A DNA stretch of 62,108 nucleotides from Clostridia bacterium. GTDB lineage: Bacteria > Bacillota > Clostridia > Oscillospirales > CAG-272. The DNA is taken from assembly GCA_017387685.1 (NCBI GenBank), contig JAFOEU010000112.1:1-62108 (forward strand), given 5' to 3'. Positions 10,374-26,873 of this stretch are shown one piece after another; positions within the stretch are counted from its first letter, which is position 1, and every line of letters starts with the position of its first letter. The translations under genes and the position numbers were made by a program. Under the pieces are notes generated by a model that searched no databases, was not told the origin of the DNA, and saw only the letters and a list, made by a program, of their open reading frames with translations.

Positions 10374-10642
10374 ACCATACACCCCAAAATCGAACTTCAC
10401 TTTTGCGCGTTAGTCCCTTTCTCTGCTCGGGGCAGGCGACCTCGCGGCACATCGAGCTAACCGCTTAATGCTGCTTGGTTCCCCACCTGACATGGTTCAC
10501 AGCGCACGATTGCGCAAGACCCACCCTTCAACACAGAAAAAGAGTCGCAGACCGCATCGGATCCGCCCTCAAAAGAGGAATGAACCCCCGCTATAGCGGA
10601 TTTCGGGTACAGGACACCGCTAACTCCCCGGCTGGTATGGCC
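10373..10642 (-). ncRNA. ffs: Signal recognition particle RNA, large bacterial type
   Basis: About 270 bases. On the minus strand the 5' Alu domain is recognisable (GGGGAGTTAGCGGTG, CCTGTACCC), close to the Bacillus subtilis scRNA. The S domain with the Ffh-binding helix 8 follows (GAACCATGTCAGGTGGGGAA, then CCAAGCAGCATTAAGCGG). The 5' end GGCCATACC pairs with the 3' GTATGGTC, which sets the boundaries. The RNA forms the scaffold of SRP for co-translational membrane targeting. Its position upstream of dnaX is conserved in Bacillota. Confidence 0.95.
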
Positions 10643-19642: not shown

Positions 19643-19671
19643 TTGATTTTTTTCGTCTTTTATGCTACTAT
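19643..19671 (+). promoter_or_regulatory. Promoter of the GDPD lipoprotein pair
   Basis: TTGATT (19643-19648), 17-base spacer, TACTAT (19666-19671), 33 bases before the start codon. Confidence 0.5.
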
Positions 19672-19703
19672 ATAAGAAATTATCTTTTCGCGAGGAAAAT
19701 TCT

Positions 19704-21608
19704 ATGAAAAAAGTTACGCTTCTTCTCTCGCTTCTGCTTGCCGCGCTGATGATCCTCTCATCCTGCGACGGCGGTGAAAGCGACGTTACTACAACCCCGG
19801 AGGTAGTCGAAACCACCACTCCCGACGCGCCTCCCGTTGCCATCACCTCAGGCGGCACGACCGAATATAAGCTCATTCGCTCCGAGAAGTCTTCGAGCGT
19901 CGTCACAGATGCCTTTGTCCGTCTGCGAAACGTTTTCAGCGAAAAATACGGCGTAAAGATCGAGGTCAGCGACGACTTCATTATGCCTAATAAGGAAGCG
20001 CATCCTTACGAGATCGCGGTCGGAAAGGTCAACCGTGAGGAATCCGCTCAGGCGCTCGAGGGCGTCGGATATAACGATGCCGTTATCGCCTATATAGGCA
20101 ACCGTCTTATGATCACGGGACACAGCGACGAGGCGATAGTCCGCGCCGTTGATCTCTTTATCGAAAAATACCTCACCGAGGGCGAGCTTACCGTAAACTC
20201 CACCCTCCGCGCGGTTGAGGCGGCAGAATACGAAAAGCCCGGCGTTACCATCGGCGGCGTTCCGCTGACCGATTACGTCATCGTTTACGGCTCGAGCTAT
20301 AAGGATGCGGCTGCTGAGGTTGCAAACCGTCTCGGCGTTCTGACGGGTGCGGTCATTCGCACGCAGGGTGAAAAGGACACCCCCGCCGCACACGAGATCG
20401 CTATCGGTGCCGCTTCGCGCTTTGCTTCGAAGATCCCCGCCGAGCGTATCGACGATTTCTATATCTCCGAGGGCGGTGCGGGTGCGCATCTCTATATCAG
20501 CGCAAACAACAAGACCGCTGTCGAAATGGCTTGCTCGCGCCTCTGCAAGATGATCGCGGAGGGCGACAAGACCGAATACGCGATCTCCGATCTCATCCTT
20601 CACTACGAGCTCCCCGCATCGCGCGATTACGTAAACGATATCGAATCCCTCCCCCTCCATTGGGAGCTTGAATTCAATACCCCCGAATGGATGCTCGATT
20701 ACGATGAAAAATACGCCGCAAGTATGGATCCCGCGGGCAGACTTATGTCCTGCGCGCACCGCGGAGATATGGTCTACTACCCCGAAAACTCGATCGAGGG
20801 CATTATCAGCTCGATCATGATGGGCGCGGATATGGTCGAGATCGACCCCCGACTCACCAAGGACGGCGTTTTCATCCTTCTTCACGATGCAACCCTCACC
20901 CGCACCACCAACTTTGAGGAGATGGCGGGCAAAAACGGTCTTCCCAAGTCCGCTAACGTAGCCGATTGGACCTACGAGCAGCTTATGCAGCTCAATCTCA
21001 AAACGGGCACGGGCGGCGCAAGCGCAAAGCTGACCCCCTACAAGATTCCCACTCTCGACGAGGCTTTCAAGGTCTGCGCAAACCGCATCTTCATCCGTCT
21101 TGACGTAAAGGGTCCGACCGATGATACTCCCTTCTGGAATTTCGAAAAGGACATCTGGCCTCTTATGCAGAAGTATGAGAGCTATTCCAACGTCATCTAC
21201 ACCTGGCACAGCTGGTTCAAATCGAGCAACTACAGCCTGACCGACACATACCGCGCAAAGGCGCAGGAGCTTTCGGGCAAGCCCGGCATCGTCTTCATGG
21301 GTGATGCAAACAGCCTCTCCTCAAACAACAAGGTCATCAAGGCGCACGATTTTAACCCCGGAATTCGTCTTTTCGTCAACTTCGGCGACGTTGATTACAA
21401 GGAATATCTTAAAAACAACAAGGTGAAGCTCGATTCCTACAAGGGCAAGCTACGCACCTACGCCGACGTTCATAACGGCAACAACGAATCCCATGCGTTC
21501 TACGCCGAGCTCTACGAAGCAGGCATCAACTACCATCTCGTAAACAAGGCACTTTCGCTCTGTCAGTACATCGCCGCGAACTTCGAGGCAACAGAATACA
21601 CCAAATAA
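19704..21608 (+). CDS. GDPD-domain lipoprotein with two N-terminal modules
   Basis: A 634-residue predicted surface lipoprotein. Signal peptide and lipobox end at MILSSC, followed by a Thr/Pro linker. Two copies of a module precede the catalytic domain: about residues 45-130 and 180-280, each with a long helix and an (E/H)EIA(V/I)G strand. The C-terminal GDPD barrel carries SCAHRGDM (His352), MVEIDPR, and LLHDATLT. It should hydrolyse glycerophosphodiesters, perhaps from phospholipid or teichoic acid, outside the cell. The ATG at 19704 follows CGAGGAAAA. The gene is nine bases upstream of a close paralogue at 21618. Confidence 0.88.
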   Translation: MKKVTLLLSLLLAALMILSSCDGGESDVTTTPEVVETTTPDAPPVAITSGGTTEYKLIRSEKSSSVVTDAFVRLRNVFSEKYGVKIEVSDDFIMPNKEAHPYEIAVGKVNREESAQALEGVGYNDAVIAYIGNRLMITGHSDEAIVRAVDLFIEKYLTEGELTVNSTLRAVEAAEYEKPGVTIGGVPLTDYVIVYGSSYKDAAAEVANRLGVLTGAVIRTQGEKDTPAAHEIAIGAASRFASKIPAERIDDFYISEGGAGAHLYISANNKTAVEMACSRLCKMIAEGDKTEYAISDLILHYELPASRDYVNDIESLPLHWELEFNTPEWMLDYDEKYAASMDPAGRLMSCAHRGDMVYYPENSIEGIISSIMMGADMVEIDPRLTKDGVFILLHDATLTRTTNFEEMAGKNGLPKSANVADWTYEQLMQLNLKTGTGGASAKLTPYKIPTLDEAFKVCANRIFIRLDVKGPTDDTPFWNFEKDIWPLMQKYESYSNVIYTWHSWFKSSNYSLTDTYRAKAQELSGKPGIVFMGDANSLSSNNKVIKAHDFNPGIRLFVNFGDVDYKEYLKNNKVKLDSYKGKLRTYADVHNGNNESHAFYAELYEAGINYHLVNKALSLCQYIAANFEATEYTK

Positions 21609-21617
21609 GGACAAGCC

Positions 21618-23153
21618 ATGAAAAGAATCACTTCACTCATCCTCGCACTCATTATGCTCGCAGGTGCTCTTGCATCCTGCAATACTACCGAACCTACTGA
21701 AACCACCGAAGTCATCACCACCGAAGCACCCGCAACCGATGCGGCAACCGAGCCCGAAACCGAGCCCGACACCACCGTTCGTATCGGTGAAACGCCTCTC
21801 GCAGAATACACAGTTATTTACTTCGAGGGCTACGAAGTGACTGCGAAAGAGCTTGCGGCACGTCTTGGCGCTGTTTGCGGCGCAGAGCTTTCGGTCAAGC
21901 CCGCCGCTGAATCGACGGGCGATCACGAAATAACGATCGGTTGGAGCAAGCTCTCGTCAACTACCGCGGGATACGGCTTTGACGATTTCGGCGCCGTCAA
22001 ATCCGAGAACACCGACTTGATCTCGATCAACGGCGGTAGCACCTATGCAATCGACACTGCTTGCGCAAGATTCGCAAAGCTCTTCACAGCCGACAAGTAT
22101 CATTACGAATTCAGCGACGTTACCTTTACCTATACCCTCCCCGATCGTCAGGAATACATAAACGACTTCTCCAAGCTTGCGCTCCATTGGTCCTTCTACC
22201 ACGAAACTCCCGAATGGATGCTTGATTTTGACGAAAAATATGCAGCCTACAATACCCCGGACGGCAGACTTATGTCCTGCCTGCACCGCGGCGAGATGGT
22301 CTATTATCCCGAAAACTCCGCAGAGGGACTTATCAGCGCGATAATGCTCGGTGCGGATATGGTCGAGATCGACCCCCGCGTGACCAAGGACGGAGTTTTC
22401 GTTCTTCTCCACGACTCAACTCTCACAAGAACAACCGACTTCGCCGAAAAGGCGGGAAAAAACGGTCTTCCCGAGTCCCCCTACCTTACCGATTGGACCT
22501 ACGAGCAGCTTCAACAGCTCAACCTCAAGATGGGCACGGGCGGCGACGGCGCAGCTGTAACTCCCTACAAGATCCCCACCCTTGACGAGGCGATCAAGAT
22601 CTGCGCAAACCGCACCTTTATCCGTCTTGACGTTAAAGAGGATGCAAACGGCAAGATATTCTGGGAATTTGACCGCGACATCTGGCCTTTGCTTGAGAAA
22701 TACAAGGCTTACACCACAGTTATCGCAACCTGGCACGCTGCATTCAACAAGAGCGGATACGCATTCACCCGCGAGCTCCGCGAAAGAACCACCGCTCTCT
22801 GCGGCAAGCCAATCCTCAACTTTATGAAGAACGAGGCAAAGGCTGACCTCCTGACACGTACCATCAAGAGCTACGATCTCTCTTATATGATGCGTCTGAC
22901 CTGCAACTTCTCCGAGTACAGCTACAAGGACTTCCTCGCGGAGAACAAGACGAGATTTGAAGGCTTCGAGGGCAAGATCAGAATCTACGCCGACGTTCAT
23001 AACACCAACCCCGCCTACCCCGAAAACTGCGAATCCACCGCATTCTATGGGGAGCTTTACGACGTGGGAATCAACGTCCAGCTCGTTAACAAGGGCTTTA
23101 TGATGTGCAAGTATATCGCAGAGAATTTCTCTGCGACGGAGTATACCAAATAA
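21618..23153 (+). CDS. GDPD-domain lipoprotein, paralogue of the upstream gene
   Basis: A 511-residue lipoprotein with lipobox ALASC and a Thr/Glu/Pro linker, one N-terminal module (about residues 55-160, ending EITIGWSKLS), and a GDPD barrel with SCLHRGEM (His223), MVEIDPR and LLHDSTLT. From the sequence TPEWMLD(Y/F)DEKYAA onward it is closely similar to the preceding gene, so the pair arose by tandem duplication, with loss or gain of one N-terminal module. AAGGACAAGCC precedes the ATG. Transcription probably ends at 23163-23198. Confidence 0.88.
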   Translation: MKRITSLILALIMLAGALASCNTTEPTETTEVITTEAPATDAATEPETEPDTTVRIGETPLAEYTVIYFEGYEVTAKELAARLGAVCGAELSVKPAAESTGDHEITIGWSKLSSTTAGYGFDDFGAVKSENTDLISINGGSTYAIDTACARFAKLFTADKYHYEFSDVTFTYTLPDRQEYINDFSKLALHWSFYHETPEWMLDFDEKYAAYNTPDGRLMSCLHRGEMVYYPENSAEGLISAIMLGADMVEIDPRVTKDGVFVLLHDSTLTRTTDFAEKAGKNGLPESPYLTDWTYEQLQQLNLKMGTGGDGAAVTPYKIPTLDEAIKICANRTFIRLDVKEDANGKIFWEFDRDIWPLLEKYKAYTTVIATWHAAFNKSGYAFTRELRERTTALCGKPILNFMKNEAKADLLTRTIKSYDLSYMMRLTCNFSEYSYKDFLAENKTRFEGFEGKIRIYADVHNTNPAYPENCESTAFYGELYDVGINVQLVNKGFMMCKYIAENFSATEYTK

Positions 23154-23208: not shown

Positions 23209-23237
23209 TTGACAAAACAGAAAAAAAGATGTATAAT
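23209..23237 (+). promoter_or_regulatory. Consensus promoter of the antitoxin RNA
   Basis: Perfect TTGACA (23209-23214), 17 bases, perfect TATAAT (23232-23237). It drives a short plus-strand RNA that opposes the toxin gene. Confidence 0.85.
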
Positions 23238-23243
23238 ATTAAC

Positions 23244-23327
23244 GTAGGAGCACCGATACGGTTGCTTCCTCGCTAAGTTAAAAAGATAACCGCACGATTT
23301 GGAAGTTTGGGCGGTTATCTTTTTTTA
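23244..23327 (+). ncRNA. Candidate antisense antitoxin RNA (RNA II-like)
   Basis: About 80 bases from the start expected for the promoter at 23209-23237 to the U-run after the hairpin AGATAACCGC / GCGGTTATCT. It is complementary to the 3' end of the toxin mRNA, including its stop codon and shared terminator. It carries the same elements GTAGGAG and GGTTGCTTCCT that appear in the 5' leader of the convergent toxin RNA. This is the layout of the par/Fst type I toxin-antitoxin locus, where RNA II pairs with RNA I at such repeats and blocks translation. Confidence 0.78.
23281..23327. terminator. Shared bidirectional terminator of the toxin-antitoxin locus
   Basis: The stem AAAAGATAACCGC / GCGGTTATCTTTT has a 17-base loop. 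It has U-runs in both directions and ends both the plus-strand antitoxin RNA and the minus-strand toxin RNA. Confidence 0.85.
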
Positions 23328-23407
23328 TTATAGATATCAATTACAAGACTGATGATTGCAACTAAAAGTGTGCAAAAAAGGAAAAGAGCTTCCCAAGTAA
23401 TGTACAT
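23315..23407 (-). CDS. Small hydrophobic type I toxin (holin-like/Fst-like)
   Basis: A 30-residue peptide starting MYITWEALFLF, with one membrane segment (about residues 8-25) and a basic end IYNKKR. It resembles the short holin-like toxins of Bacillota, which damage the membrane when expressed. The ATG at 23407 follows GGGAGGTGATGCCA; an alternative ATG two codons earlier overlaps this ribosome site. Its mRNA has a 5' leader of about 100 bases with an internal hairpin (GGAAGCC...GGCTTCC type) that could hide the ribosome site. The convergent antitoxin RNA overlaps its 3' end. The function is inferred from this architecture. Confidence 0.8.
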   Translation of the reverse strand: MYITWEALFLFCTLLVAIISLVIDIYNKKR

Positions 23408-23515
23408 TGGCATCACCTCCCTCTTTGTCGAGGAAGGCAAAAAGATTTCGGCTTCCTCTGAAACAAAGGAAGCAACCGCACCGTTATGGTACTCCTACGG
23501 GCTTGCGCCATCTAT

Positions 23516-23544
23516 ATTATATCACAGTCAAGAAAAATTGTCAA
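23516..23544 (-). promoter_or_regulatory. Consensus promoter of the toxin mRNA
   Basis: On the minus strand perfect TTGACA (23544-23539), 17 bases, perfect TATAAT (23521-23516). It gives an RNA of about 230 bases. Confidence 0.85.
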
Positions 23545-23567
23545 TTATAATTAATATAGAAAAAAGA

Positions 23568-23596
23568 TTGATTTTCAACCCCATCTGTGCTATAAT
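23568..23596 (+). promoter_or_regulatory. Promoter of the GH127 gene
   Basis: TTGATT (23568-23573), 17 bases, TATAAT (23591-23596), 33 bases before the start. Confidence 0.6.
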
Positions 23597-23628: not shown

Positions 23629-25437
23629 GTGACGAAATGGAATTTTTACACAACAAATGAAATAAAGCCCGAGGGATGGCTTCGCCGTCAGCTCGAGATT
23701 CAGGCAGAGTCCCTGGCGGGTAATCTTGATAAGGTCTGGCGCGACGTTCGCGACAGCGCGTGGATCGGCGGCGATGCTGAAGGTTGGGAGCGCGTGCCCT
23801 ATTGGCTCGATGGCTTCATCCCGCTTGCATATCTGCTCGAGGACGAGGACAAGATCGCCCGCGCGAAGAAGTACATTGATGCGATCCTTTCCTATCAGAA
23901 AGAAAGCGGATGGATCTGCCCCTGCGCCGAGGAAAACATTCCTACCTACGATTCGTGGGCGGTTCAGCTGATCTCAAAGGTTCTCGTCGTTTACTACGAA
24001 TGCTCGCGCGACGAGCGCATCCCCGATGCGCTCTACCGCGTTATGAAGAACTACCACGAACTGCTCTCCTCGGGTACGATCTCGCTCTTCAAGTGGGGAA
24101 AGGCGCGTTGGTTTGAGGCGTTTGTCGCAATAGATTTCCTCAAAAAACGCTATAATGAGGAATGGCTCTCCGACCTTGCGCGCATTCTGAAGGATCAGGG
24201 CACCGATTATCCCTCCCTCACAGATCGTTGGAAACGTCCGCTTGACAAGTGGACTTATGAAACTCACATCGTCAACCTCGCTATGATGCTGAAATACGAG
24301 GCTGTCAGCCACACACACCTCGGTGAGGAATATATCGATTCGGCAGAAAAGCTCTCAGAGGTTCTCCGCACCTACAACGGCACGCCCGTCGGACTTTTCA
24401 CGGGCGACGAATGCCTTTCGGGGCTTTCCCCGATTCAGGGCACGGAGCTCTGCGCCGTTGCCGAGCAGATGTACTCCTACGAGCATCTTTTCGCCGCAAC
24501 CGGCGACTTCAAGTGGGCTGAACGCCTCGAGGTACTTGCATTCAACGCCCTCCCCGCGACCATCAGCGACGATATGTGGACGCATCAGTACGATCAGCAG
24601 AGCAACCAGATCGCCTGCATCCGCTTCCCCGGCAAGGCGATATTCGGCACGAACAAGCGCGAGGCTCATCTTTTCGGACTCGAGCCCGAATACGGCTGCT
24701 GCACAGCAAACTTCGGTCAGGCTTGGCCGAAATTCGCCCTCTCCGCGTTTATGCGCTCGGGCGACGAGGTCATTTCGGTCGTTCCCGTGCCGTCATCTGT
24801 CAAAACCGACGCTTATTCTGTCGAGCTGAAAACGAATTATCCCTTCGAAAACTCTTTTGAATATACCGTCGAGGCGAAGGAAGACTTCAAGCTTCTCGTC
24901 CGCATCCCCTCCTTCGCGAAGGATCTCAAAGTAAACGGCAACGCCGCCTATGGCTCTATGCTCCTACTCCCCGTCAAAGCGGGCGAAAAGAAGATCTTTA
25001 ACATCGAATTTACCGCAAATCCCGAATTTTTCAACCGTCCGCATAATCTCGCAAGCGTCCGTTGCGGCTCGCTCGTCTTCTCGCTCCCCATCAAGTACGA
25101 AAAGAAGATGTACGAATACGAGAGAAACGGCGTTGAGCGCAAGTTCCCCTACTGCGATTACGAATACATCCCGAAGTCGGATTGGAACTACGCATTCTCC
25201 TCGCTTGAATTGAAGCTCAACAAAAAAGCCCTCTCCGATATTCCCTTCTCCTCCGAGCATCCGCCCGTAACGCTGACGGCAAAGATGAAGCAGATTCCTT
25301 GGGGACTTGCCGAACGTCACGAAAACGTCTGCGCCAAGGTGCCCGAATCACGTATTCCGATCTCGGATGAAACGGCGATCGAGCTCTATCCCTACGGCTG
25401 TGCAAAGCTCCGTATGACCGAAATGCCGATAATATGA
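23629..25437 (+). CDS. Beta-L-arabinofuranosidase, GH127 family
   Basis: A 602-residue glycoside hydrolase of the GH127 type, which removes beta-L-arabinofuranose from plant glycans. The (alpha/alpha)6 barrel fills the first two thirds. The zinc and nucleophile residues known in this family are present: Glu273 and Cys275 in TELCAVAEQ, and Cys357-Cys358 in YGCCTAN. A beta-sandwich follows. There is no signal peptide, so it acts inside the cell on imported oligosaccharides. Translation starts at GTG (23629), eight bases after GGAGG. Its stop overlaps the next start by ATGA. Confidence 0.9.
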   Translation: MTKWNFYTTNEIKPEGWLRRQLEIQAESLAGNLDKVWRDVRDSAWIGGDAEGWERVPYWLDGFIPLAYLLEDEDKIARAKKYIDAILSYQKESGWICPCAEENIPTYDSWAVQLISKVLVVYYECSRDERIPDALYRVMKNYHELLSSGTISLFKWGKARWFEAFVAIDFLKKRYNEEWLSDLARILKDQGTDYPSLTDRWKRPLDKWTYETHIVNLAMMLKYEAVSHTHLGEEYIDSAEKLSEVLRTYNGTPVGLFTGDECLSGLSPIQGTELCAVAEQMYSYEHLFAATGDFKWAERLEVLAFNALPATISDDMWTHQYDQQSNQIACIRFPGKAIFGTNKREAHLFGLEPEYGCCTANFGQAWPKFALSAFMRSGDEVISVVPVPSSVKTDAYSVELKTNYPFENSFEYTVEAKEDFKLLVRIPSFAKDLKVNGNAAYGSMLLLPVKAGEKKIFNIEFTANPEFFNRPHNLASVRCGSLVFSLPIKYEKKMYEYERNGVERKFPYCDYEYIPKSDWNYAFSSLELKLNKKALSDIPFSSEHPPVTLTAKMKQIPWGLAERHENVCAKVPESRIPISDETAIELYPYGCAKLRMTEMPII

Positions 25438-26873
25438 AAAGATTCATTTTAATACTTGTCCTTCTGCCCCTTATCCTCATCTCCTGCAATCCCGCAGAGA
25501 TTCCGGCAGAAACCACGTTGCCCGAAACTACTTTGCCCGCCGAAACCACCGAAGCAATCCCCGAGGTGCTCTCGATCTCGATCGCGGGTGCTGATATTTC
25601 GGAATACACCATAATCCACAACGGCTCAAAATCCTCAATAGCTTGCGCAAACGAGCTGAAAGCGGCGATCACCGAGGCGGTCGGATGCCGTCTTCCCGTA
25701 AAAAGCCACACCGCAAAGGAAGGCGAGCGTGAAATTCTCGTCGGCAAAACGAACCGCGCAGAAAGCGCCGAGGTCAGAGGTAAGTTTGACCGCCCGAACG
25801 TGTACTATTCGGTAGAGGTAGTCGGTGAAAAGCTCGTCGTTATGGGCGAGGGCAGAGCGACTCTTGAAAAGCTTTCAAAGGTTCTGACCGAATACTTCTC
25901 CTCCCTCTCCCCCGCACCGACCGCGCTTGAAGGCACCGTCATCAGCGGCGACATTCTTGACACGGTCAACAAGAACAAAAACAGTATGTGGGAGCGCGCC
26001 GAGGGCACCGATCTTCGCGTATTTCATTGGAATATGGCGGCACCGTATCTTGATCCCAACGTCACAACGCCTCCCGTGGTTTACACCGACAACGTAACGC
26101 GCGGCGAGGATATCGCGGACATGATACTGCAATTCCTGCCCGATATCATCACGACCAACGAGTTTTACGCCAGCCACAACGGCAATACCGTCTTTTTCGA
26201 TGCCGTTATGGGCGAGCTCGGCGAATACTACGTCTGTCTCGATTCACCCTACGATAAGGGCAAGCCCGAGGCGGGCGCGGATGCGATCAGCGGCAAGACG
26301 ATCAATTCAAACATCATCTACCGCAAGGATATCGGTCTTGAGGTCATCTCGTCCGCTTGGCGTTATTCAACGCAGAAGACCAATACCTCGTCAAAAAATC
26401 CGATGGGCTTTATCTACTACCACGGCTCGCATACTGCGGTATTCTCCTATAAGGGACAAAGTTTCATCCTCTCGACCGCGCACTACGCCGACAGCCGTTC
26501 GTCAAGCCAGTGGGCGAAGGAGCAGCTTGCCGCCATTGCGGATGCGCAGTCTGCGTTTTCATCCCCGCTCCACGTTATTCTCACGGGCGACCTGTATACC
26601 GGACGCACACAATCCTCCCCCGACAGCGCGTATAAGTACCTCGTTGCAAACGGCTACGTCGACTCTCAGCAAAGTGCACCGCTCAACGGAAATCAGAACA
26701 GATCCCACGGCACCTTCCATAAGATCGGAACAAGGGAAACCAACCGTATTTCCGAGGATTTCGTATGGTGCAAGGGCGAGCTTCAACCACTCGCCTTTAA
26801 GGTGCTCGTCAACAAGATAAGCGACGATGCGAGCGACCACTATCCCGTTATGGCGGATATTAAGTTCAATTAA
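25434..26873 (+). CDS. Lipoprotein with endonuclease/exonuclease/phosphatase domain
   Basis: A 479-residue lipoprotein (lipobox LILISC), with a Thr/Glu/Pro linker, then the N-terminal module seen in the GDPD and metallo-hydrolase lipoproteins (about residues 45-165, with REILVGKTNRAES). The C-terminal EEP fold has HWNM (from His198), TTNEFY, NSNIIYRK, STAHY, LTGDLY and DHYPVMADI. This superfamily hydrolyses phosphodiesters in nucleic acids, lipids or inositol phosphates; the substrate is not predictable here. The start overlaps the GH127 stop by ATGA, so the two are translationally coupled although one is cytoplasmic and one exported. Confidence 0.85.
   Translation: MKRFILILVLLPLILISCNPAEIPAETTLPETTLPAETTEAIPEVLSISIAGADISEYTIIHNGSKSSIACANELKAAITEAVGCRLPVKSHTAKEGEREILVGKTNRAESAEVRGKFDRPNVYYSVEVVGEKLVVMGEGRATLEKLSKVLTEYFSSLSPAPTALEGTVISGDILDTVNKNKNSMWERAEGTDLRVFHWNMAAPYLDPNVTTPPVVYTDNVTRGEDIADMILQFLPDIITTNEFYASHNGNTVFFDAVMGELGEYYVCLDSPYDKGKPEAGADAISGKTINSNIIYRKDIGLEVISSAWRYSTQKTNTSSKNPMGFIYYHGSHTAVFSYKGQSFILSTAHYADSRSSSQWAKEQLAAIADAQSAFSSPLHVILTGDLYTGRTQSSPDSAYKYLVANGYVDSQQSAPLNGNQNRSHGTFHKIGTRETNRISEDFVWCKGELQPLAFKVLVNKISDDASDHYPVMADIKFN

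What the first reader, a model, noticed from the sequence alone, without database searches (positions are those of the whole stretch)
23209..23544. Complete par/Fst-like type I toxin-antitoxin locus with two consensus convergent promoters
The sequence shows a 30-codon hydrophobic peptide gene (minus, 23315-23407). Its RNA starts at a perfect TTGACA-17-TATAAT (23544-23516). An opposing promoter, also perfect (23209-23237), makes a short RNA that overlaps the toxin 3' end. Both RNAs share one bidirectional terminator (23281-23327). Both carry the same short elements near their 5' ends: GTAGGAG and GGTTGCTTCCT (plus 23244-23270; minus 23498-23467). Shared repeats plus a shared terminator with convergent transcripts is the hallmark of par of plasmid pAD1 (RNA I/RNA II). 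Here it is chromosomal, in a clostridial genome, between a GDPD lipoprotein and a GH127 gene, with a toxin that looks holin-like rather than Fst itself.
Basis: partly seen in the sequence, partly recalled or inferred. Interest (0 to 1): 0.85.

Follow-up and report, generated by a model that had tools for sequence, protein, structure and literature searches.

The report
Twin-leader type I toxin-antitoxin module
A tiny membrane-peptide gene and a short RNA are read towards each other and begin with the same control sequence, a layout that recurs in many gut Clostridia and some phage contigs and looks like an RNA-controlled toxin-antitoxin family that we could not find described.

Summary
In detail: two perfect convergent promoters, a shared 14-bp terminator hairpin and a 30-residue peptide that passes Pfam Hol_Tox. 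The par/Fst reading fails on two defining points: the toxin is not Fst, and the repeats are inverted in the DNA, so both RNAs carry the SAME element (in par of pAD1 they are complementary). Comparison shows a clostridial family. In 68 nonredundant loci the toxin leader matches its own antitoxin's 5' end in the same sense (33.4 against 18.2 for non-cognates; 0 of 5000 permutations). An antitoxin model hits 96 of 245 genomes of the order (61 at E 1e-6; weak hits can be plain terminators), with 4 strong copies in this genome; 13 of 15 viral contigs with one element variant also have hits. Some of the toxins match no Pfam family. Leader/antitoxin differences favour G-U-keeping changes (182 to 39; further loci 133 to 30), as expected if the leader pairs with the complement of the antitoxin's 5' end. 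Best model: the leader locks the ribosome site, and the antitoxin re-locks it by freeing the leader from a 3' fold-back, or acts as a second anti-SD strand. Toxicity, transcripts and mechanism are untested.

The parts
23209..23237 (+). antitoxin promoter, perfect TTGACA-17-TATAAT
   Evidence: an antisense promoter of 11 or more of 12 in 70 of 103 related loci against 0.3 expected
23243..23327 (+). predicted antitoxin RNA, about 85 nt
   Evidence: -10 box plus 6-7 nt to the shared terminator; fold -31.8 kcal/mol, z -4.6; model R1 hit 23240-23328, 78.3 bits (this locus is in the model)
23243..23270 (+). twin element, antitoxin copy (E_A): P1 CGTAGGAG, small hairpin, S1 GGTTGCTTCCT
23280..23324 (.). 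shared terminator hairpin, 14-bp stem; terminator-like in both directions at this locus
   Evidence: I5
23315..23407 (-). 30-codon Hol_Tox peptide gene with stop; stop codon and C-terminal codons overlap the terminator
23416..23423 (-). Shine-Dalgarno segment GAGGGAGG
   Evidence: predicted unpaired probability 0.001
23430..23438 (-). segment 3, anti-SD GCCTTCCTC
   Evidence: pairs with the SD in the predicted fold
23451..23459 (-). segment 2, AGAGGAAGC, pairs with S1 or alternatively with segment 3
   Evidence: predictions
23467..23499 (-). twin element, toxin-leader copy (E_T), same sense as E_A
23500..23509 (-). small hairpin at the predicted 5' end of the toxin mRNA (GGC-GCAA-GCC), absent from the antitoxin
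   Evidence: predictions
23516..23544 (-). toxin promoter, perfect TTGACA-17-TATAAT
   Evidence: 11 or more of 12 in 47 of 103 related loci against 0.4 expected
23243..23270 (-). anti-E: complement of the twin element, present in a toxin transcript only if it runs past the shared terminator
   Evidence: extended RNA 23510-23156 is predicted to fold with a long E:anti-E helix
23156..23198 (.). second inverted repeat with T tracts on both strands; possible end of a read-through toxin mRNA, also GDPD terminator
   Evidence: (I3)

Best explanation
The locus is a type I toxin-antitoxin module of an unnamed clostridial family. Shown from sequence: a Hol_Tox-like membrane peptide, two convergent promoters, a shared terminator, and an inverted duplication that gives toxin mRNA and antitoxin RNA the same 5' element. 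Inferred: the toxin mRNA silences itself, because its leader forms an S1:2 hairpin and a 3:SD hairpin that hides the ribosome site. The twin element exists because the toxin leader also pairs with the complement of the antitoxin's 5' end, which lies just past the shared terminator on the toxin strand. A toxin mRNA that reads through folds 5' to 3', its leader is captured, segments 2 and 3 pair with each other, and the 3:SD lock loosens. The antitoxin, antisense to that 3' end and presumably labile, displaces the leader, which then re-locks the SD, and the duplex can be cut. A contribution of direct antitoxin S1:SD pairing is likely. On loss of the module or of the antitoxin the toxin is made and damages the membrane.
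For: Of 103 loci scanned, 47 have a toxin promoter and 70 a convergent antisense promoter of 11 or more of 12 (0.4 and 0.3 expected). Cognate same-sense match in 68 loci, 0 of 5000 permutations, and in 80 further loci below 85% antitoxin identity to these and to each other, 30.2 against 20.3, 0 of 5000. Leader/antitoxin transitions keep G-U pairing with the toxin strand's complement: 182 to 39, 56 of 66 loci leaning that way and 6 the other; at positions unpaired in both local folds 34 to 5; in 64 of the further loci 133 to 30. Predicted SD pairing with its own leader 0.82 against 0.52 with shuffled leaders, 66 loci. In an extended mRNA more than half of E pairs with anti-E in 56 of 61 loci and SD:leader pairing falls from 0.83 to 0.52. 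Terminator-like sites on the toxin strand beyond the antitoxin -35 in 22 of 66 loci against 4.2 in shuffles. B. subtilis bsrG/SR4 also has a same-sense match of toxin leader and antitoxin strand (score 34), there within the bsrG 3' region.
Against: At this locus the shared terminator looks good in toxin direction too, so the read-through that fold-back needs is unproven. The SD stays paired in the extended fold of this locus (free 0.00 to 0.03), because it pairs with early ORF codons. The 22 downstream sites could belong to neighbouring genes (11 of 66 on the other strand). The wobble bias counts related loci more than once, much of it lies in the middle of the element (99 to 7; P1 27 to 8, S1 47 to 23), and weaker local hairpins in the toxin RNA could cause part of it. 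Within seven genomes with several copies the cognate excess is clear in four, weak in this one and G477 and absent in G497. In the further loci the complementary score was raised as well (28.5 against 20.3), mostly but not wholly explained by tandem neighbours. No toxicity, transcript or binding data.
Confidence: 0.5

Rival explanations
1. Trans anti-SD mimic: the toxin mRNA always ends at the shared terminator; the antitoxin docks there by its complementary terminator and its S1 copy then pairs with segment 2 or the SD of the toxin leader, doing in trans what the toxin's own S1 does in cis. This works like par (two contacts, terminator and ribosome site) without par's sequence logic.
For: Contiguous pairing of antitoxin S1 with the toxin leader downstream of S1 is better for cognates, z 5.2 (reversed control 1.7), and with the last 22 nt z 4.3 (1.8), 64 loci. 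For the window locus, removing the leader element lowers 3:SD from 0.99 to 0.29 and adding the antitoxin 5' part restores 0.99 (prediction).
Against: Not general: truncation lowers SD:3 by more than 0.2 in 10 of 40 loci and raises it in 16. It does not explain why P1 of the toxin equals P1 of the antitoxin although toxin P1:S1 pairing shows no cognate excess (z 0.0); toxin P1 with antitoxin S1 does (z 3.2, control 1.2), which would be a hairpin-swap version of this model. A gapped-duplex version of the test did not separate signal from its control.
Confidence: 0.3
2. Ordinary antisense type I module of the TxpA/BsrG kind: pairing at the shared 3' region and RNase III cleavage do all the work; the twin element is a relic of an inverted duplication kept alike by repair between the two arms.
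For: The two RNAs overlap over the terminator. In B. subtilis 3' pairing and RNase III suffice for txpA/RatA (PMC6562991, passages).
Against: The difference between the copies is directional, 182 to 39, which repair between arms would not obviously give; P1:S1 in the antitoxin and leader X with terminator arm X' co-vary (z 4.6 and 5.0).
Confidence: 0.13
3. True par/Fst-family locus.
For: Convergent promoters, bidirectional terminator, predicted SD-hiding leader hairpin.
Against: Hol_Tox, not Fst; repeats inverted, so the RNAs are not complementary there.
Confidence: 0.02
4. Not toxic: a small regulatory membrane peptide under RNA control (a question about the peptide, not exclusive with the RNA models above).
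For: No function was tested; the Hol_Tox name is a putative annotation.
Against: The architecture (antisense RNA, self-locked leader, tandem arrays, viral contigs) fits type I toxins.
Confidence: 0.1

Closest known systems
par of pAD1 (Fst / RNA I-RNA II)
   Same: convergent promoters, shared bidirectional terminator, tiny membrane peptide, toxin SD hidden by a leader hairpin (predicted here)
   Different: toxin family; par repeats are direct in DNA and make the RNAs complementary (PMC7472228, passages), here they are inverted and the RNAs carry the same element
bsrG/SR4 and txpA/RatA of Bacillus subtilis
   Same: small membrane toxin, convergent antisense RNA pairing at the toxin 3' end; bsrG leader and SR4 strand share a same-sense stretch; permissive Rfam scan gives a sub-threshold BsrG hit (12.1 bits, gathering 55)
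   Different: in B. subtilis the RNAs overlap by 100-140 bp (PMC6562991, passages); here 47 bp if both RNAs stop at the shared terminator, and the twin element lies at the antitoxin's 5' end beyond it; model R1 does not find the SPbeta stretch at E 0.001
hok/Sok and AapA/IsoA
   Same: toxin mRNA locked by anti-SD strands and by 5'-3' pairing (AapA3: PMC6733600, passages; hok mostly recalled)
   Different: unrelated peptides; no same-sense copy of the leader in the antitoxin is described in the passages read
Type I modules of Clostridioides difficile (CD2517.1-RCd8 and others)
   Same: Clostridia, convergent antisense antitoxins
   Different: toxins of 50-53 residues without homology to known type I toxins (PMC6563280, passages)

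Membership tests
par/Fst | Fst-family toxin | tested here: not met
   only Pfam hit is Hol_Tox PF16935; NCBIfam gives only a sub-threshold PepG1 hit
par/Fst | DNA direct repeats giving complementary RNAs | tested here: not met
   inverted repeats; same-sense 37, complement 18
par/Fst | convergent promoters and shared bidirectional terminator | tested here: met
   (sequence only)
par/Fst | leader hairpin hiding the toxin SD | tested here: met
   prediction only
TxpA/BsrG (Hol_Tox) type I modules | Hol_Tox peptide | tested here: met
   25.9 bits, cut-off 23.3
TxpA/BsrG (Hol_Tox) type I modules | antitoxin complementary to 100-140 bp at the toxin 3' end | tested here: inconclusive
   47 bp if the toxin mRNA stops at the shared terminator, about 85 if it reads through; 3' end unknown
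SprG/SprF (PepG1) | PepG1 equivalog | tested here: not met
   17.7 bits, cut-off 70
type I toxin-antitoxin (general) | toxic peptide neutralised by an antisense RNA | not testable with these tools
   needs expression and deletion experiments
any Rfam family | gathering score | tested here: not met
   no match at this locus (permissive only sub-threshold) nor in 13 related loci

The most novel reading that the evidence does not exclude
A class-wide family of type I modules defined by its RNA chassis rather than its toxin: very different tiny membrane peptides ride on one twin-leader layout, and the antitoxin represses by a leader exchange (freeing or replacing the toxin's own 5' lock) instead of simple antisense masking of the ribosome site.
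Probability: 0.4. Interest if true: 0.75.

Novelty: new variant of a known kind. Interest (0 to 1): 0.6.

Why it matters
If true, gut Clostridia carry a common RNA-controlled toxin family that the peptide alone largely misses: the antitoxin model hits 96 of 245 genomes of the order at E 0.001 and 61 at 1e-6, the window peptide 23 of 394 at E 0.01 (a different draw of genomes and another kind of score). It would show that one RNA switch can be reused with very different toxins, and the near-identical leaders of three of the four copies here pose a testable question of cross-talk between copies.

Tried and rejected
Par-type complementary repeats: rejected. Rfam membership: none. Gapped duplex energies as a test of antitoxin-leader pairing: uninformative, since the reverse-complement control was enriched as well; replaced by contiguous helices with a reversed control, in which some segment boundaries are misassigned (for example L045, L007, L102, L103) and were left in. 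RNAalifold on the toxin leader found only the SD hairpin, 4 pairs, because MAFFT does not align the other segments. Truncation-activates as a general rule: not general. Rows dropped: five spurious ORFs and eight loci with short flanks before (116 to 103); loci with an antisense promoter under 10 or too far away, then redundant ones, before (103 to 85 to 68); two loci with a weak twin match (L011, L028); two more without a pivot. Further loci: the complementary score was also raised (28.5 against 20.3, 0 of 5000). 63 loci without listed near-tandem copies but not screened for redundancy and partly overlapping the first set, gave same sense 31.2 against 21.4 and complement 22.8 against 19.1 (each 0 of 5000); 6 of its 7 complementary matches of 26 or more lie 227-318 nt upstream, where a neighbouring module's anti-E is expected; the seventh (L239) is unexplained. 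Model R1 at weak scores also hits plain terminators: in this genome L174 and L175 (E 3.9e-4 and 9.3e-4) show no toxin. Phage and plasmid records: no plasmid match for P0001 (E 10) or for the peptide of class-level locus L063 (E 0.01); no phage match for that of L065 (E 0.1); for P0001 18 phage records, one unverified faecal scaffold at E 8e-4 and 17 Streptomyces phages, the nine listed at E 0.9 or above in metallophosphatase or metallophosphoesterase genes. PADLOC: no match.

Papers: PMC7472228, PMC6562991, PMC6733600, PMC4147584, PMC8040213 and PMC10903887, passages; PMC6563280, abstract and passages; PMC11228461, abstract, opening text and outline; all others search listings only. That this family is not in print rests on eight searches of one open-access library; subscription papers and supplements were not seen (PMC8040213 reports 301 structured RNAs with an opposing-strand candidate, some of which might be these). 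Segment names (E, P1, S1, X, twin) are mine.

Full report
Observation. The reported parts are all present at the stated coordinates. Two perfect sigma-70 promoters face each other, their -10 boxes 278 bp apart, over a 14-bp terminator hairpin; the minus transcript encodes MYITWEALFLFCTLLVAIISLVIDIYNKKR behind a strong SD. Perfect promoters are common in this window (8 in 62 kb), so the layout, not the promoter quality, is the signal. The peptide passes Pfam Hol_Tox (25.9 bits, cut-off 23.3) and fails NCBIfam PepG1. No Rfam family reaches its gathering score.

The repeats are not par repeats. GTAGGAG..GGTTGCTTCCT at 23244-23270 (+) and 23498-23467 (-) are inverted in the DNA. Both RNAs therefore carry the same element. 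In par of pAD1 the repeats are direct and give complementarity (PMC7472228, passages).

A family. PF16935 was found in 47 of 395 genomes of the family at E 0.01 (24 above the cut-off) and 48 of 393 of the class at E 0.001 (46 above the cut-off); the window peptide in 23 of 394 of the order at E 0.01. From 132 loci 116 candidate peptides were drawn, some spurious. Of 103 kept with enough flank, 47 have a toxin promoter of 11 or more of 12 matches (0.4 expected) and 70 a convergent antisense promoter of that quality (0.3 expected).

Same-sense twins. Of 85 loci with an antisense promoter of 10 or more in range, 68 are nonredundant below 80% identity. Leader and antitoxin 5' end of the same locus score 33.4 on average, non-cognate pairs 18.2; the cognate leader is best among 68 for 40; 0 of 5000 permutations reach the mean. 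Complementary alignment: 17.2 against 16.4, 101 of 5000. Within seven genomes with several copies (58 listed copies, not all that exist), permutations reaching the cognate mean were 0 (G424), 10 (G495), 53 (G534), 111 (G487), 642 (G477), 826 (this genome, 4 copies) and 3709 (G497, near-identical copies) of 5000. In 80 further loci the same-sense score was 30.2 against 20.3 (0 of 5000; cognate best for 18 of 80); there the complementary score was raised too, 28.5 against 20.3. Without listed near-tandem copies (63 loci, not screened for redundancy) it was 31.2 against 21.4 in the same sense and 22.8 against 19.1 complementary; 6 of 7 strong complementary matches lie where a neighbouring module is expected.

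The RNA finds more than the peptide does. A covariance model of 46 antitoxins hit 96 of 245 genomes of the order at E 0.001, 61 of them at 1e-6, up to 17 copies in one. Weak hits can be plain terminators. This genome has four strong copies (E 2.3e-15 or better): C111 (window), C48, C37 and C85. The first three share the CGTAGGAG element, C85 carries CGGAGA on both sides. Of 30 loci from the 30 best-scoring genomes, 25 have a small hydrophobic ORF ending 12 nt from the model boundary by script, and three more by eye (L141, L147, L157); L156 has none and L166 only a remnant of the toxin's C-terminus. Ten peptides from RNA-led loci were scanned: none passes a Pfam cut-off, one has a sub-threshold Hol_Tox hit, one a sub-threshold DUF2953 hit, eight nothing at E 1. 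A pattern of the antitoxin element occurs in 29 stretches of named genome contigs: 28 are Clostridia or Oscillospiraceae MAGs, 25 of them with goat, sheep, deer or 'Lapin' (rabbit, as I read it) in the title, several from one MAG, and all 28 carry a model hit; the 29th, a Comamonadaceae MAG, does not. That pattern was absent from viral contigs; another variant was in 15, of which 13 carry a model hit, 13 of 14 hits with a small convergent ORF by script, four of them identical. An unverified faecal phage scaffold also carries the layout.

Structure. The window toxin mRNA folds to -72 kcal/mol (z -4.3) with S1:2 and 3:SD hairpins; the antitoxin to -31.8 (z -4.6). Over 66 loci the SD is paired with its own leader at 0.82, against 0.52 with dinucleotide-shuffled leaders. 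Co-variation by contiguous helices, 64 loci, z with reversed control in brackets: toxin S1 with downstream leader 8.0 (2.8); antitoxin S1 with toxin leader 5.2 (1.7); P1:S1 in the antitoxin 4.6 (1.0), in the toxin 0.0 (1.2); toxin P1 with antitoxin S1 3.2 (1.2), the reverse 1.7 (1.2); antitoxin P1 with toxin leader 1.0 (2.5); leader box X with terminator arm X' 5.0 (1.4).

Why twins? Where the two copies differ, transitions run one way: toxin G / antitoxin A or toxin T / antitoxin C 182 times, the reverse 39 times; 56 of 66 loci lean that way, 6 the other, 4 neither; outside the conserved GGCGG box 102 to 38. At positions unpaired in both local folds 34 to 5; by part, middle 99 to 7, P1 27 to 8, S1 47 to 23. 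In 64 further loci 133 to 30. This is the pattern expected if the toxin leader pairs, with G-U allowed, with the complement of the antitoxin's 5' end, which lies on the toxin strand past the shared terminator. An extended window toxin RNA folds with a long E:anti-E helix; in 56 of 61 loci more than half of E pairs with anti-E, and SD:leader pairing drops from 0.83 to 0.52 (26 loci drop by more than 0.3, one rises). In the terminator region a terminator-like site was seen in antitoxin direction in 64 of 66 loci and in toxin direction in 38, some of the 38 being other hairpins; such sites lie on the toxin strand beyond the antitoxin promoter in 22 of 66 (4.2 expected; 11 on the other strand). 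In bsrG/SR4 of SPbeta the bsrG leader matches, in the same sense, a stretch within 200 nt of the SR4 strand (score 34; 12 at its first 60 nt), so that the bsrG 3' region holds its complement; by my reading of that alignment its transitions are of the G-U-keeping kind. Loci are related, so none of these counts is a clean probability, and weaker local pairing in the toxin RNA could add to the bias.

Context. GH127 is present in 5 of 12 other genomes of the genus at E 1e-60. DNA similarity of the three closest begins at about 23548 to 23568, of the two others later; no GDPD or module similarity was found in the 1.2-1.5 kb upstream that was fetched. Module and left flank are thus variable at this site. 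The window peptide has no match in the other 12 genomes of the genus at E 0.01, though a Hol_Tox hit occurs in three of them (G003, G010 with a stop inside, G011), and that of G003 (L103) has the full layout.

Verdict. A real type I-like module of a large clostridial family with a same-sense twin leader; par-like in layout, not par. Function and mechanism are inferred.

Noticed in passing
window 10375-10640 (-): Bacterial large SRP RNA, 158 bits.
   Followed up: no
window 19662-21608 and 21618-23153 (+): Two adjacent GDPD paralogues; the ORF 25434-26873, which starts like a lipoprotein, has no Pfam hit at E 1e-5.
   Followed up: partly
G497:C1:290980-292416 (L179); also G424, G534, G495, G487: Head-to-tail arrays of the module, five copies 332-347 bp apart in G497.
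   Followed up: partly
L005, L023, L025, L093, L141, L147: A subgroup has an extra short ORF with its own SD before the toxin start, which suggests translational coupling to a leader peptide.
   Followed up: no
L103, L098, L045, in part L026: Hairpins with a T tract in toxin direction that contain the antitoxin -35 box.
   Followed up: no
toxin leaders of 45 loci: A hairpin starts within 4 nt of the predicted toxin 5' end in 26 of 45, in antitoxins in 9 of 45 (shuffles 16.6 and 17.5), consistent with a stable mRNA and a labile antitoxin.
   Followed up: partly
window 23315-23330: The C-terminal lysine codons of the toxins read on the other strand as the antitoxin's U tract, so the charged tail and the terminator share sequence.
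   Followed up: partly
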